Source: Thermaerobacter marianensis DSM 12885 (GTDB lineage Bacteria; Bacillota; Sulfobacillia; Thermaerobacterales; Thermaerobacteraceae). From it: a DNA stretch of 64,000 bases. The translations under genes were made by a program, and so were the position numbers. Numbering within the stretch: the first letter of the stretch is position 1; each line of letters begins with the position of its first letter. Below the pieces are notes generated by a model. That model saw nothing but the letters and a program-made list of their open reading frames with translations. It was not told the origin of the DNA and did no database searches. This document shows, piece by piece, positions 1,256-40,109 of the stretch. The stretch is from assembly GCF_000184705.1 (NCBI RefSeq), contig NC_014831.1:2418001-2482000 (forward strand), written 5' to 3'.

Positions 1256-2266
1256 CTAGCGCAAACGGACCAGGATCCGGCCCCGCACCCGCCCGGCCAG
1301 GACGTCGTCGAAGGCGCCGGGCAGGCCGGCCAGTTCGACCTCCCGGTAGACCAGATCCTCCAGCGCCTCCGGCCGCAGGTCGCCGGCCAGCCGCTGCCAG
1401 ATCCGCATCCGCAGCGGCATGGGGCAGTACACCGAATCGATCCCGAGCAGGCTCACGCCCCGCAAGATGAAGGGGAAGACCGTGGTGTGCAGGTGGCTGC
1501 CGCCCGTCAGGCCCACCGCCGCCACGGCCCCGCCATAACGGGTGGTGCGGAGGACGTGGGCCAGGGTATCGCCGCCCACGGCGTCGATGGCCGCCACCCA
1601 CTGCTGCTTCTCCAGGGGCTTGCCGCCCTTCACGGCCACTTCGTCCCGCGGGATGACCCGGCTCGCCCCCAGGCGCTCCAGATAGGGGGCGGCCTCCGGC
1701 TTGCCGGTACTGGCCACCACCTCGTAGCCCCGGCGGGCCAGGATGGCCACGGCGACGGAGCCCACGCCGCCCGAGGCGCCGGTGACCAGGACGGGCCCGC
1801 GGCCCGGCGCCAGGCCGTGTTCTTCCAGGCGGTGGAGGGCCAGGGCGGCGGTGAAGCCGGCGGTGCCCAGGATCATGGCCTCCCGGAGGTCGAGGCCCCG
1901 GGGCAGGGGGACGACCCAGTCGCCCGGTACCCGCGCGTACTCCGCATAGCCGCCGTAATGGCTGACGCCGAGCTCGTAGCCCGTCACCAGGACCGGATCC
2001 CCCGGGCGGAAGCGCGGGTCCGCCGATTCCACCACCTTCCCGGCCAGGTCGATGCCCGGCACCATGGGATACGACCGCACCACCCGGCCGTCGGGCCGGC
2101 TGGCCAGGCCGTCCTTGTAGTTCACCCCGGAGTAGGCCACGCGGATCGTGACCTCCCCCGGCGGGAGGTCACCGGGCGTCAGGGAGCGCACGCCCTGGCG
2201 CAGGTGGCCCTGCTCGTCCCGCTCGACCAGGTAGGCGGCAAAGCGGTCGGCCGTGCCGGTGGTCAT
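1256..2266 (-). CDS. YhdH/AcuI-type NADPH:quinone (acryloyl-CoA) reductase
   Basis: A 336-residue zinc-independent medium-chain dehydrogenase/reductase. The quinone-oxidoreductase pattern is clear: SGVNYKDGLASRPDGRVVRS near the N-terminus, PGIDLAGKV, the Rossmann motif LVTGASGGVGSVAVAILARRG mid-protein, and GLTGGSHLHTTVFPFILRGV then LLGIDSV toward the end. Members close to this (E. coli YhdH, Rhodobacter AcuI) reduce acryloyl-CoA to propionyl-CoA with NADPH; others act on quinones, so the substrate is not settled. The ATG at 2266 is chosen because GGGGGAGGGG sits just before it; a start 21 bases upstream would put that site inside the gene. No operon partner is obvious. Confidence 0.85.
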   Translation of the reverse strand: MTTGTADRFAAYLVERDEQGHLRQGVRSLTPGDLPPGEVTIRVAYSGVNYKDGLASRPDGRVVRSYPMVPGIDLAGKVVESADPRFRPGDPVLVTGYELGVSHYGGYAEYARVPGDWVVPLPRGLDLREAMILGTAGFTAALALHRLEEHGLAPGRGPVLVTGASGGVGSVAVAILARRGYEVVASTGKPEAAPYLERLGASRVIPRDEVAVKGGKPLEKQQWVAAIDAVGGDTLAHVLRTTRYGGAVAAVGLTGGSHLHTTVFPFILRGVSLLGIDSVYCPMPLRMRIWQRLAGDLRPEALEDLVYREVELAGLPGAFDDVLAGRVRGRILVRLR

Positions 2267-6692: not shown

Positions 6693-7256
6693 TCATGCCT
6701 CCCACGGGGATGGACGAACTGCGGGGCCGGCGTCCTCGCTGCCCGGGTCACCGGCCCCCGCAGCAGCTCCGGCGACGGCCCGGGCCAGCAGGCGAGTGGT
6801 GGAGAGGCCGGGTTCCGGAGGAACCAGCACCACGCGAGCCCCCACCCGCCTCGCCGGCTCCACTTCGGGCAGCCGGTCGAGGCGGTAGTCGCCTCCTTTA
6901 ACGTACCACTGCGGGCGCACGGCCTGGACGAGGCCGGTGGCCGTATCGCCCTCGAAGATCACCACCCAGTCGACGCACTCCAAAGCCGCCACCAGCAGGG
7001 CCCGCTGCCGGGCGGGGACGACGGGCCGTCCCGGCCCCTTGAGCCGGCGGACGCTGGCGTCGTCGTTGACGCCGACCACCAGCACGTCGCCCAGGGACCG
7101 GGCGTGCTCCAGGGTGCGCAGGTGACCGGCGTGGAGCCAGTCGAAGCAGCCGTTGGTCAGCACGACCTGCGCGTCCTGGGGCAGCGCCGCCAGGTGCCCC
7201 AGCAGGCGCTCCAGGGATACCAGCTTGTCCGCGGCACGGCGGGGGACCCCGCGCAT
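6693..7256 (-). CDS. rfaE2: D-glycero-beta-D-manno-heptose 1-phosphate adenylyltransferase
   Basis: A 187-residue nucleotidyltransferase equivalent to the C-terminal domain of E. coli HldE. It makes ADP-heptose from heptose 1-phosphate and ATP. The signature is LTNGCFDWLHAGHLRTLEHA, the (T/H)xGH-type adenylyl-transfer site, followed by VVGVNDDASVRRLKGPGRPV, then ALECVDWVVIFEGDT and WYVKGGDYRLDRLPE; these match RfaE2 closely. ATG at 7256 lies four bases after the stop of the kinase gene, with GCGGGGGTG upstream; the longer frame to 7358 would overlap that gene deeply. It sits between the kinase and TerC genes in one operon. The tail is Ala/Gly-rich. Confidence 0.88.
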   Translation of the reverse strand: MRGVPRRAADKLVSLERLLGHLAALPQDAQVVLTNGCFDWLHAGHLRTLEHARSLGDVLVVGVNDDASVRRLKGPGRPVVPARQRALLVAALECVDWVVIFEGDTATGLVQAVRPQWYVKGGDYRLDRLPEVEPARRVGARVVLVPPEPGLSTTRLLARAVAGAAAGAGDPGSEDAGPAVRPSPWEA

Positions 7257-37175: not shown

Positions 37176-38945
37176 TCAGCGGGCGCCCGGCCCCGGTTCC
37201 CGGGCGGCGACGGCGGCGATGCGGATGGCCGTCCGGCCGTCCGGGCCGGGTTCTTCCACAAAGGTGACGGTGATCCGGGAGCCGTCGCTGCGGGTCACCA
37301 CCAGCGGGCCCCGCCGGTCGCCGCCGGCGGCCGGTTCGACCCGCCACCCCTGGCCCAGGGGACGCTGGGTCAGGAGGTCGCGGCCCGCCGCCAGCACGGC
37401 AGGATCCTGCCCGCGGACCAGCGCGGCGGCTTCCGCCAGATCCCCCCGGCTCACCAGCGTAATGAACGCCTGCAGCACGCTCAAGGGCTGGTCGACGGGC
37501 CGGGTGGAGGCGGGCAGATAGGTGCCGGCCGTGGCCGACCAGATCCAGCGCTGGTGCCAGAGGCCGGTGACCGGGCCGTCGGGCGTCACCAGCACGGGGC
37601 GCCCGGCGGGTCCAGAGGCCGACGAACCGGTTCCCTCCGGGCCAAAAGCCCACCGCCCCGCCGGTACCGGCGCTTCCGTCACCACGTCGATCCACGTGGC
37701 GTCCGGGGCCACCTCCACCTGGCGCAAGGGCCCGGCGGCGGGGAAACCGGACGAACCGGCCGGCGTACCCGCCGGCGCAGCGGCGGCCCCTCCGGGCCCG
37801 CCCGCACCGCCGGTCGCCCCTGCCGTGCCCGCCGCCGTCCCGTCGGCGGCCGCCGCCGCGGCAGATCCCGCCGCGGGCACCGCCTGCGGACTGCCCAGGC
37901 TCCAAACTGCCTGCCACGAACCCCCGGCCCGTTCCAGCAAGGTCACCCGCAAGGCAGGCTGGCCGCCCGCGGGATAGTGCTCCGTGACCAGCAGCAGGCG
38001 GGCCGGCTGGTCGCCGCCGCCCGGCCACAGCCAGGCGTCCTTCACCACGGCCGCCAGCCCTGGAGCCGGTCCGGTCCCGGTTCCGGCGGGCCCGGAGGCT
38101 TTCCCGCCTGCGGCCGCCAGCGGGCTGGCGCCCCAGTCGCCCAGGACCTGCAGCTGGACACCGGGCTCGCGGGTCCAGGTGGCGATGATGTGCCCCGCCG
38201 TCTCCGGGAAGCGGGGACCGAAGTCCACCAGCAGGACGGCCCGGGGTTCGCCGGCTTCCGGGCTTGAGCCACCGCCGCGGCTTCCGCGTCCCGCCGCGCT
38301 CGGGGTGGCGGACCCGTCCGAGGCGGTTCCCGCGCCGGAGCCGGCGCCGGCGCCCGGGCCGGCTCGGCTGCCGGGATCGCCGGCGGATGTGCTCTGCATT
38401 GGCCCGGAAAACGCCCCGTCCTGGAGCCGGCGGGGCTGCGCCACACGGACGAAGGGCATCTCCGGGGTGGCCAGTTCCAGTTCGAGGACCACCGGGTCCA
38501 GGGGCCGGGTCGTGGGGTCCAGCCGCTCCAGGCGATAGAGAATTTGCTGGACGGCCCGGGCGAAGGCGTCGCCGGGACCCGCCGGAGGCGGTCCGAGGGC
38601 CGAACGGGTTTCGTTGCGGGGCTCGCCGGGCGGGATGCCGGTGCCTCCTACCGGCGGACCGCCCGGTGGTCCGGCCTGGACGGTCAGGGGTGCCGGGCTG
38701 CCGGCGCCCCCTGCCGACAGGGCGGGACGAACGACCTCCGGGGAACCGGCGGGACGTGCCACCGCCATGGCTCCCCCTGCGGAGGGCCCGGCCGGGGCGA
38801 GCCCCAGGACTTCGACCCCCGCCACCTGGCGCCAGAAAAAAGCGGCCAGCAGCACCGCAGGGGCAAGAACCCGGATCGCCCGAGCCCGCACGCCCGCGGT
38901 GGCGGCCGCTGGTCGCCTCGTCGGGACGGAAGTCGGGATCGTCAT
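37176..38945 (-). CDS. unknown secreted or membrane-anchored protein
   Basis: A 589-residue protein with an N-terminal signal/anchor (basic residues, then IRVLAPAVLLAAFFWRQVAG at about 24-43). It has long Ala/Pro/Gly/Ser-rich linkers and four islands of ordered sequence: FARAVQQILYRLERLDPTTR (about 128), AVLLVDFGPRFPETAGHIIA (about 245), ARLLLVTEHYPAGGQPALRV then TLLERAGGSWQAVWSLGSPQ (about 310), and PLSVLQAFITLVSRGDLAEA through GSRITVTFVEEPGPDGRTAI at the C-terminus. The last island, with a helix pair followed by beta strands, recalls a ligand-binding NTF2-like or sigma-anti-sigma accessory fold, but I recognise no family. ATG at 38945 lies only about 8 bases downstream of the -10, with no ribosome site, so the message is nearly leaderless. 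Confidence 0.6.
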   Translation of the reverse strand: MTIPTSVPTRRPAAATAGVRARAIRVLAPAVLLAAFFWRQVAGVEVLGLAPAGPSAGGAMAVARPAGSPEVVRPALSAGGAGSPAPLTVQAGPPGGPPVGGTGIPPGEPRNETRSALGPPPAGPGDAFARAVQQILYRLERLDPTTRPLDPVVLELELATPEMPFVRVAQPRRLQDGAFSGPMQSTSAGDPGSRAGPGAGAGSGAGTASDGSATPSAAGRGSRGGGSSPEAGEPRAVLLVDFGPRFPETAGHIIATWTREPGVQLQVLGDWGASPLAAAGGKASGPAGTGTGPAPGLAAVVKDAWLWPGGGDQPARLLLVTEHYPAGGQPALRVTLLERAGGSWQAVWSLGSPQAVPAAGSAAAAAADGTAAGTAGATGGAGGPGGAAAAPAGTPAGSSGFPAAGPLRQVEVAPDATWIDVVTEAPVPAGRWAFGPEGTGSSASGPAGRPVLVTPDGPVTGLWHQRWIWSATAGTYLPASTRPVDQPLSVLQAFITLVSRGDLAEAAALVRGQDPAVLAAGRDLLTQRPLGQGWRVEPAAGGDRRGPLVVTRSDGSRITVTFVEEPGPDGRTAIRIAAVAAREPGPGAR

Positions 38946-38952
38946 GGTAACA

Positions 38953-38981
38953 GGTTAATCTTTCTGTAATCTTTATGTCAA
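38953..38981 (-). promoter_or_regulatory. promoter with consensus -35 for the secreted unknown; direct repeats in the spacer
   Basis: On the minus strand TTGACA (38976-38981), 17-base spacer and TTAACC (38953-38958). The spacer and flank contain ATAAAGATTA and AGAAAGATTA, two copies of AAAGATTA exactly 11 bases apart, i.e. one helical turn. The start codon is immediately downstream. The region is by far the most A+T-rich of this part of the window. Confidence 0.6.
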
Positions 38982-39044
38982 ATTTGCTTCACCACCGGTC
39001 CCGGCCGTCCCACCCCACGTTGGCCGTTTTGCGTTGCCGTCCGC

Positions 39045-40109
39045 TCACGACCACGCCGCCGGGAAGCCCTCGCCCAGCACCTCCGCCGCGTCGGTGACGG
39101 CCACGAAGGCGTAGGGATCGATGTCACGGATCAGCTGCTTGAGCCGCGCCAGCTCCCGCCGGTTCAGCACCACCAGCACCACCGCCCGTTCTTCCCCCGT
39201 CCAGGCACCGGTGGCCCGCAGCAGCGTGGCACCGCGCCCCAGCTGCGTGGTGACCGCCTGGGCCACCTCCTGCGGCCGCGTGGTGACGATCCAGGCGCTC
39301 TTGGCCCGCAGCGGGCCCTCCTGGACCACGTCGGCCACCCGCCCGCCCAGGAACGTGACCAGGATGGAGTAGAGGGCGGTGTCGGCGCCCAGGGTCAGGG
39401 CAAAGGCCGCCAGCACCAGGCTGTCGAACACCAGGAACGTCTCGGCGATGCCGATGCCGTACCGCTCCTTGAGAAACCGGGCCACGATGTCGACGCCGCC
39501 GCTGGACGCCCCCGCCCGGAACAGGAGGCCGATGCCGGCGCCGATGAAGGCGCCGCCGTAGAGGCTGGCCAGCAGGGGCTCGTCGACCGGGAAGGCCACG
39601 CCCTCGGTGAGCCGCAGGGCCAGGGTCACCAGCAGCGTGGCCAGGCCCGTGCGCAGGATGAACCCGCGCCCGATGGCCCACCACCCGAAGACGAAGAGGG
39701 GCACGTTGAGCAGCAGGTACAGCAGCGAGACGGGCAGGCCGGTGGCGTAGTGGAGCAGCAGGGACACGCCGCTGAGGCCGCCCTCGCCCAGCCGGGCCGG
39801 CACCAGAAAGCCGTTGATGCCCAAGCTGAACAGGGTCGCCCCGGCGGCCAAGAACGCCACCTGGACGAACCGGCCCGCCCCGGCCGGGCCGCCGCTCCCC
39901 GACCCGCTGCGGGCCGCCGTGCCGCCCTCCGGCCCGCCCCCTGCCATCCCGCCACCGGCCGGGTCTCGTCCCGCCGCACCCCGGCGGTCCCGGCGCGGGC
40001 CCGCCGGTAGGGCACCGGCTGCGACCCCGCCGGCCGCCGCGCCACGTGGCACCGGACCGGCCGCCATCCCGCCGGCCCGGGCCGGCTGCTCCGGCTTGCC
40101 TGACGTCAC
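39045..40109 (-). CDS. YitT-family membrane protein (DUF161 + DUF2179)
   Basis: A 354-residue protein. After an 80-residue Ala/Gly/Arg-rich cytoplasmic leader, five to six helices follow: FVQVAFLAAGATLFSLGING, GEGGLSGVSLLLHYATGLPV, LLYLLLNVPLFVFGWWAIG, FILRTGLATLLVTLALRLTE, LASLYGGAFIGAGIGLLFRA. The signature GASSGGVDIVARFLKERYGI and FLVFDSLVLAAFALTLGADT are typical of YitT. The C-terminal DUF2179 domain reads SAWIVTTRPQEVAQAVTTQL then GRGATLLRATGAWTG and IRDIDPYAFVAVTDAAEVLG. Function is unknown. GTG at 40109 follows GGGGAGGCGGCAGG. It lies about 60 bases beyond the Rieske gene, perhaps in the same transcript. Confidence 0.9.
   Translation of the reverse strand: MTSGKPEQPARAGGMAAGPVPRGAAAGGVAAGALPAGPRRDRRGAAGRDPAGGGMAGGGPEGGTAARSGSGSGGPAGAGRFVQVAFLAAGATLFSLGINGFLVPARLGEGGLSGVSLLLHYATGLPVSLLYLLLNVPLFVFGWWAIGRGFILRTGLATLLVTLALRLTEGVAFPVDEPLLASLYGGAFIGAGIGLLFRAGASSGGVDIVARFLKERYGIGIAETFLVFDSLVLAAFALTLGADTALYSILVTFLGGRVADVVQEGPLRAKSAWIVTTRPQEVAQAVTTQLGRGATLLRATGAWTGEERAVVLVVLNRRELARLKQLIRDIDPYAFVAVTDAAEVLGEGFPAAWS

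What the first reader, a model, noticed from the sequence alone, without database searches (positions are those of the whole stretch)
38930..38985. Near-leaderless gene with 11-base-spaced repeats inside its promoter spacer
A consensus TTGACA and a TTAACC -10 lie so close to the ATG that the transcript must start within a few bases of it. Two AAAGATTA copies spaced one helical turn lie between and beside the promoter elements, which resembles a response-regulator site. The gene product is an exported protein of unknown family. Other genes in the window have strong ribosome sites, so this one stands out.
Basis: partly seen in the sequence, partly recalled or inferred. Interest (0 to 1): 0.55.

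Follow-up and report, generated by a model that had tools for sequence, protein, structure and literature searches.

The report
Leaderless promoter with response-regulator-type repeats
In a GC-rich bacterium, a gene for an exported protein of unknown family seems to start its message almost exactly at the start codon, and its promoter carries 11-base repeats like those found there near several cell-wall genes; this looks like an ordinary control site on an unstudied gene.

Summary
On the minus strand, TTGACA (38976-38981), two exact AAAGATTA copies 11 bases apart and an ATG at 38945 are there; the 19-base pattern occurs once in the genome. The -10 is better read as TAACCT (38952-38957; TANNNT, first T 12 bases before the ATG). 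The four relatives found with the gene keep TGACnnAAnnnTTnCnnAAnnnTTAnnnT-N6-ATG, while upstream DNA has diverged (G000-G003: 31/40 against 12/60 identical). The TAA/TAG inside the -10 is an in-frame stop and no transcribed Shine-Dalgarno fits: very probably a leaderless gene. Invariant bases recur at 11-bp steps through the spacer, as in a tandem OmpR/PhoB-family response-regulator site. Sites of similar class stand before sigI-rsgI, a SleB-type wall hydrolase (also near-leaderless) and htrA in the genus. Best reading: a WalR/MtrA-like wall regulator binds across -35 and spacer, most likely blocking RNA polymerase. Separation from a phosphate-type (PhoP) site is clear in two genomes but weak in the others. 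Binding, sign of regulation and the protein's role are untested. In the searches made, the protein occurs only in this genus and one related MAG. A new member of a known kind; modest interest.

The parts
37176..38945 (-). Gene: 589-aa probably exported or membrane-anchored, Ala/Gly/Pro-rich protein of unknown family
   Evidence: ORF; 0 Pfam and 0 NCBIfam families; orthologs in 4 of 40 other genomes searched; hydrophobic N-terminal segment read by eye, no signal-peptide predictor run
38943..38945 (-). ATG start codon, first possible start in its frame
   Evidence: in-frame TAA four codons upstream; same arrangement (TAA or TAG) in the 4 relatives
38952..38957 (-). -10 element TAACCT (TANNNT), 6 bases before the ATG; its TAA is the in-frame stop
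   Evidence: TAACCT/TAAGCT/TAAACT/TAAACT/TAGCAT in 5 of 5 genomes, same distance
38976..38981 (-). -35 element TTGACA, 18 bases from the -10; also the first half-site of the tandem box
   Evidence: TGAC invariant in 5 of 5
38971..38981 (-). 11-base unit TTGACATAAAG
   Evidence: invariant positions -35,-34,-33,-32,-29,-28
38960..38970 (-). 11-base unit ATTACAGAAAG, in the spacer
   Evidence: invariant positions -24,-23,-21,-18,-17
38949..38959 (-). partial 11-base unit ATTAACCTGTT, overlapping the -10
   Evidence: invariant positions -13,-12,-11,-7
38982..38992 (-). possible further unit GTGAAGCAAAT; not conserved
   Evidence: overlapping 3-mismatch hit; no matching unit in the relatives' sequences
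38965..38981 (+). WalR-style reading of the tandem box: TGTAAT-CTTTA-TGTCAA, on the strand opposite the gene
   Evidence: exact match to TGTMAH-N5-TGTMAH; highest two-unit score in the window at spacing 11 (partly circular, see report)

Best explanation
This is a self-contained sigma-70-type promoter whose transcript starts at or within about one base of the ATG (leaderless mRNA), overlaid by a tandem 11-bp direct-repeat site for an OmpR/PhoB-family response regulator of the WalR/MtrA type, the class that controls cell-wall metabolism. Two half-sites (TGTAAT-N5-TGTCAA on the strand opposite the gene) cover -35 and the spacer, and a third, weak one runs into the -10. The likeliest mode is that the phosphorylated regulator occupies the promoter and blocks RNA polymerase, releasing the gene when wall-related signalling falls; class-II activation from the same place is not excluded. 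The product is a probably exported, lineage-specific protein that may act at the cell envelope. Shown: the conserved promoter anatomy, the 11-bp register and related sites before envelope genes. Inferred: leaderlessness, the identity of the regulator, its sign and the protein's role.
For: Conserved block in 5 of 5 genomes with invariant positions at 11-bp steps, including in the spacer, where sigma-70 is not known to need sequence (recalled). TANNNT with its first T 12 bases before the ATG in 5 of 5, the position of leaderless-gene signals in PMC3160421 (passages). TGTMAH-N5-TGTMAH with up to 1 mismatch: 126 matches against 59 for the reversed pattern over 5 genomes. Sites recur in G000-G003 upstream of sigI-rsgI, a Hydrolase_2 (SleB-type) gene, an HtrA-like protease gene and an ABC ATPase gene (orthology checked by tblastn). 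The hydrolase promoter has a similar layout: GTTACA-N5-GTTACTAT with TACTAT-N9-ATG in 4 of 4 genus genomes. Four degenerate 11-bp-spaced units also precede the GerMN gene beside the WalR-like pair in 4 genomes. T or G stands at the third base of the half-sites here and at sigI, hydrolase and htrA, A or C at pst. A WalR/MtrA-like regulator gene is in 5 of 5 genomes; its best NCBIfam model is YycF/WalR, 260 bits, against MtrA 247 and PhoB 220. Published motifs: WalR TGTWAH-N5-TGTWAH (PMC9210968, passages); MtrA of Streptomyces KTRACC-N5-GTKACN, with one site over the -10 of bldD, which MtrA represses (PMC5650626, passages).
Against: The site departs from the B. subtilis WalR consensus (C for W in TGTCAA). 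In G002 (same block in G001) and G004 the two half-sites are weak: 6.7 and 6.0, 5.2 and 3.1, against 9.9 and 12.2 in G000 and G003; the pst pair of G001/G002 (TTAACA, TTCACA: 6.9 each) scores as high or higher than these. The WalR-like regulator is below NCBIfam's cut-off (260 against 340); the pst-side regulator is a near tie between PhoB (251) and YycF (250), and both regulators have the same two best solved relatives, RegX3 and MtrA, so that test does not tell them apart. The genome has 8 Trans_reg_C genes. A looser box pattern was barely enriched (495 against 361 control). Of the 31 G000 matches about 10, at 8 places, lie before envelope-type or exported-protein genes. The sign of regulation has no direct evidence.
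Confidence: 0.55

Rival explanations
1. The box belongs to another OmpR-family regulator, most plausibly the PhoP/PhoB-like one about 10 kb from the pst operon, and the gene is phosphate-regulated.
For: PhoP/PhoB sites are also 11-bp direct repeats (recalled); a regulator with PhoB as best model lies near pst, and a PnpS/PhoR-like kinase (375 bits, cut-off 400) next to pstS. Under the score matrix the pst pair of G001/G002 (13.8) is not below this promoter's pair in G002 (12.7) or G004 (8.3).
Against: The repeats upstream of pstS (TTAACC or TTAACA, TTCACA, TTCCCC; found in the 3 of 5 fetched stretches that hold pstS) carry A or C at the third base, where this promoter has T or G in 5 of 5 genomes, as do sigI, the hydrolase and htrA; in G000 pst units score 1.3, 6.9 and -4.9 against 9.9 and 12.2.
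Confidence: 0.2
2. It is only a conserved leaderless promoter; the 11-bp repeats reflect -35, -10 and an A/T-rich spacer and no dedicated regulator binds.
For: Two of the three repeat units coincide with -35 and -10, and A/T-rich promoters stand out in a 74% G+C genome.
Against: Five spacer positions (-24,-23,-21,-18,-17) are invariant in 5 genomes and sit 11 bases from invariant positions of the first unit (chance of this was not computed); similar repeats occur at unrelated promoters.
Confidence: 0.17
3. The gene is mainly expressed by read-through from the YitT gene upstream, so most of its mRNA has a leader.
For: Same strand, 99 bases between the genes; no terminator called in the gap.
Against: No SD in a usable place before the ATG in the 5 genomes; in G003 no YitT match lies in the roughly 1.4 kb held upstream, yet the promoter block is kept.
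Confidence: 0.08

Closest known systems
WalR (YycF/VicR) boxes of Firmicutes, TGTWAH-N5-TGTWAH
   Same: Two hexamers at 11-bp period; TGTAAT exact and TGTCAA one base off; sigI-rsgI and wall hydrolase genes among the genes with related sites here
   Different: C in the fourth base of a half-site; regulator below the YycF equivalog cut-off; box inside a leaderless-type promoter
MtrA sites of actinobacteria (KTRACC-N5-GTKACN in S. coelicolor)
   Same: TTGACA-N5-ATTACA on the gene strand fits at most positions; a GerMN-domain gene near the two-component pair recalls the MtrAB-LpqB layout (LpqB recalled)
   Different: Sixth base A, not C, and first base of the second half-site A, not G; host is not an actinobacterium; GerMN gene not shown to be an LpqB
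Leaderless genes of high-GC bacteria (TANNNT about 12 bp before the start)
   Same: Position and consensus, no SD
   Different: Few cases in the DNA sampled here; carries a -35 and a tandem regulator-type box
WalR-repressed B. subtilis genes iseA and pdaC
   Same: Envelope-related genes under a WalR-type regulator (repression: PMC4478028 and, for iseA, PMC7299342, passages)
   Different: No sequence relation tested; repression here is inferred from box position only

Membership tests
Leaderless gene | TANNNT with its first T about 12 bp upstream of the start codon | tested here: met
   12 bases in 5 of 5 genomes
Leaderless gene | no Shine-Dalgarno in a transcribed leader | tested here: met
   GGAG, GAGG, AGGA or AAGG in the 22 bases before the ATG: 1 of 5 (G003, an AAGG upstream of the -10, so not transcribed)
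Leaderless gene | mapped mRNA 5' end at the start codon | not testable with these tools
   no transcript data held
OmpR/PhoB-family tandem site | direct repeats at 11-bp period | tested here: met
   exact 11-base period in G000; invariant columns at 11-base steps in 5 genomes
WalR regulon | TGTWAH-N5-TGTWAH | tested here: inconclusive
   one departure (C for W) in G000 and G003; more in G001, G002 and G004
WalR regulon | true WalR (YycF) ortholog by curated cut-off | tested here: not met
   260.4 bits against 340, though the best of the models
WalR regulon | binding and response to WalR phosphorylation | not testable with these tools
   needs footprinting or expression data
Pho regulon (pst-type box) | half-sites like those before pstS of the same genome | tested here: inconclusive
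   third-base class differs in 5 of 5 and scores differ clearly in G000, but the matrix does not separate the pst pair of G001/G002 from this promoter in G002 and G004
Known protein family for the product | Pfam or NCBIfam match | tested here: not met
   0 families; 0 of 4 orthologs with a Pfam match up to E 10

The most novel reading that the evidence does not exclude
The protein is a lineage-specific secreted modulator of wall hydrolases, functionally an IseA-like brake, made from a leaderless message and switched by a WalR/MtrA-type regulator, so that this lineage runs a wall-homeostasis circuit with its own effector and with leaderless output genes (this one and a SleB-type hydrolase).
Probability: 0.12. 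Interest if true: 0.5.

Novelty: new member of a known kind. Interest (0 to 1): 0.3.

Why it matters
If right, it gives a first sketch of a cell-wall two-component regulon in a GC-rich branch of Bacillota whose regulator and sites look intermediate between the WalR and MtrA styles, places an unknown exported protein in it, and offers a test of how a response regulator works when its site lies inside a promoter whose transcript has no leader. Each part is of a known kind, so the gain is one of annotation and of testable hypotheses rather than of principle. Whether such a regulon has been described was searched only by 'Thermaerobacter' with 'two-component' and with 'leaderless'.

Tried and rejected
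Tried: strict sigma-70 scan (no promoter called). 29-base full motif in 5 genomes: this gene's promoters, plus one overlapping hit and one 3-mismatch hit between ruvB and the sigI operon, which gave the lead. Looser box TGYAANCNTTYCGNCA with 2 mismatches: 495 matches against 361 control, too unspecific to use. The hit at 501249, 193 or more bases before a LysM-SleB gene, is doubtful: it lies beyond that gene's TATAAT. Structure prediction of the MAG ortholog aligned with the window protein: mean pLDDT 52.6; Foldseek gave no hit at E 0.001 or better, though many of the listed weak hits are beta-propellers (fold class recalled); not used. PDB sequence search with the family alignment: one hit at E 0.6, taken as noise. 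Papers: searches returned 0 papers; searches gave the papers used; one search listed 3 papers, seen as a listing only. PMC7299342, PMC5650626, PMC9210968, PMC3160421, PMC12340547 and PMC4478028 were seen as passages only.

Rejected: TTAACC as the -10; the octamer AAAGATTA as the recognition unit; PhoP box as first choice, though it is not excluded.

Full report
WHAT IS THERE. The finding lies on the minus strand of a single 2,844,696-base contig, 74% G+C in the window. No tool names the organism; size and gene content recall Thermaerobacter marianensis (recalled, not tested). The gene, 37176-38945 (-), follows a YitT-family gene (39045-40109, -) and precedes a YchF-type GTPase gene. Its promoter, read on the gene strand, is GTGAAGCAAAT TTGACATAAAG ATTACAGAAAG ATTAACCTGTT ACC ATG. 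The exact pattern AAAGATTA-N3-AAAGATTA occurs once in the genome; in 100 shuffles of the window it was not met even with 3 mismatches.

IS IT CONSERVED. Orthologs of the 589-aa protein were found in 4 of 40 other genomes searched: three of the same genus (G001-G003) and one of the same family (G004). G004's contig is also in genome contigs, titled Bacillota MAG ZC4RG37, the one locus returned by that scan. In all five genomes the bases before the ATG fit TGACnnAAnnnTTnCnnAAnnnTTAnnnT-N6-ATG. G000 and G003 share 31 of 40 bases at -40 to -1 but 12 of 60 at -100 to -41; G000 and G002, 22 of 40 against 14 of 60; G000 and G004, 19 of 40 against 20 of 60, so for the most distant pair the excess is slight. 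G001 and G002 are near-identical here (39 of 40) and count as about one lineage. Invariant positions fall on an 11-base grid: T at -35/-24/-13; G, T, T at -34/-23/-12; C at -32/-21; A at -29/-18 and -28/-17; -33, -11 and -7 are invariant without a partner. The chance of such a grid was not computed.

LEADERLESS. The conserved -10 is TANNNT with its first T 12 bases before the ATG (TAACCT, TAAGCT, TAAACT, TAAACT, TAGCAT). Its TAA or TAG is in frame with the gene in all five, so no start lies further upstream, and no SD sequence stands in the few bases that could be transcribed. TANNNT about 12 bp before the start is the published signature of leaderless genes in bacteria (PMC3160421, passages; see also PMC12340547, passages). 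In the window plus 18 fetched G000 stretches, 474 candidate starts gave TANNNT-N6 at this gene only, N7 to N10 8 matches at 7 starts (two of them alternative starts of the SleB-type gene), N11 to N18 1 match, and N19 to N24 9 matches. So a near-leaderless class is hinted at but not established by this count, which rests on a crude coding filter and up to three candidate starts per frame. No 5' end has been mapped.

THE REPEATS ELSEWHERE. The one other G000 place matching the full motif (3 mismatches) lies between ruvB and an operon of a small membrane protein, a SigI-like sigma factor and an RsgI_N protein. There the other orientation reads, for instance, TGTAAACATTTCGTCATCTTATTGTAAAC in G002. 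This suggested the WalR-style pattern TGTMAH-N5-TGTMAH. With up to one mismatch it has 126 matches in 5 genomes against 59 for the reversed pattern. Sites recur in G000-G003 before sigI-rsgI, a Hydrolase_2 (SleB-type) gene, an HtrA-like protease gene and an ABC ATPase gene; Pfam was run on the G000 members only and the others were tied to them by tblastn. In G003 the htrA match begins several hundred bases further from the site than in the other three. A site before an Amidase_3-SLH gene is seen in G000 and G002 and a matching string is listed in G001. Of the 31 G000 matches, 30 were inspected (the 31st is this promoter). Counting this one, about 10 matches at 8 places precede envelope-type or exported-protein genes, one of them (before a LysM-SleB gene) doubtful. 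The other 21 lie inside or at the start of other coding frames, before genes with no clear wall role (an octopine-dehydrogenase-type gene, for one), or away from any start by my filter. The hydrolase gene has a promoter plan like the finding's: GTTACA-N5-GTTACTAT, with TACTAT 9 bases before the ATG, in 4 of 4 genus genomes.

A score matrix trained on the sigI, hydrolase and htrA units, not on this gene, puts 38981 (-) first in the window at spacing 11 (22.1; next independent site 11.1); the best values at spacings 8-10 and 12-14 are 11.3 to 16.5. In 264,360 positions of 20 other G000 stretches two sites score as high: htrA (in training) and the site before an exported protein in L095. This is partly circular, because the training sites had been picked by a pattern that the finding also fits, and the stretches were chosen for such sites. 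The evidence independent of that is the cross-species conservation and the excess over the reversed-pattern control.

WHICH REGULATOR. The genome has 8 Trans_reg_C genes. One (L044 3091-4071) has YycF/WalR as its best NCBIfam model (260 bits, cut-off 340; MtrA 247, PhoB 220), a kinase with HAMP but no PAS match, and a GerMN-domain gene nearby; orthologs exist in 5 of 5 genomes. Before that GerMN gene stand four degenerate 11-bp-spaced units in 4 genomes. Another regulator (L037 4320-5087) is a near tie of PhoB (251) and YycF (250) and lies about 10 kb from the pst operon, which has a PnpS/PhoR-like kinase next to pstS. Both regulators have RegX3 and MtrA as best solved relatives. The box before pstS was found in the three fetched stretches that hold pstS (G000, G001, G002) of five; its third base (A or C) differs from the finding's class (T or G, 5 of 5). 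In G000 the scores differ clearly (pst 1.3, 6.9, -4.9; finding 9.9, 12.2), but the pst pair of G001/G002 (6.9 each) is not below the finding's pair in G002 (6.7, 6.0) or G004 (5.2, 3.1). So the WalR/MtrA-like protein is the best candidate, on motif class and neighbourhood only. Because the WalR cut-off is not met, I say that the site works like a WalR/MtrA box, not that it is a member of the WalR regulon.

MODE. The half-sites cover -35 and spacer and touch the -10, while a -35 and a TANNNT are kept: a layout that suits repression by occlusion. In S. coelicolor an MtrA site overlaps the -10 of bldD, which MtrA represses (PMC5650626, passages), and WalR represses iseA and pdaC in B. subtilis (PMC4478028, PMC7299342, passages). 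Activators of this family can also bind over the -35 (recalled), so activation stays open.

THE PROTEIN. No Pfam or NCBIfam family, no PDB relative by sequence beyond one hit at E 0.6, a poor model and weak fold hits. It has an N-terminal hydrophobic stretch, a conserved C-terminal region and linkers of very different length between species (427 to 838 aa). In G001 the ATG frame ends after 252 codons while the conserved C-terminal part is open in another frame; I left G001 out of the protein alignment for that reason.

VERDICT.

Noticed in passing
L087 about 1989-2064 (-), with L088, L089, L090: A SleB-type (Hydrolase_2) gene has a near-leaderless promoter with GTTACA-N5-GTTACTAT, and further upstream a TGTAAA-N5-CGACAC-like box in the opposite orientation; seen in four genus genomes.
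   Followed up: partly
L044 about 6872-6926 (+), with L122, L123, L124: Four 11-bp-spaced units before the GerMN-domain gene near the WalR-like pair, the last ending 10 bases before a TANNNT, as an activator site might; the layout recalls MtrAB-LpqB (recalled).
   Followed up: partly
L105 about 1990-2040 (-) and L128 about 1290-1345 (-): A LysM-SleB gene has TATAAT followed at once by 11-bp-spaced TTAC-like repeats (three in G004), then an SD and the ATG: perhaps an operator downstream of the -10.
   Followed up: no
window 51303 (-): A TANNNT 8 bases before a GTG of a 560-codon frame: another possible near-leaderless start in the window.
   Followed up: no
L010 1157 onwards (G001 ortholog): The reading frame of the G001 ortholog is broken: the ATG frame stops after 252 codons and the conserved C-terminal part continues in another frame. 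Mutation or sequencing error not distinguished.
   Followed up: no
L097 and L098 about 2001-2028: A partly palindromic TGTGACAAATTTGTCAAATTTATGACAC upstream of an Amidase_3-SLH gene in G000, kept with small changes in G002 and, as a listed string, in G001.
   Followed up: no
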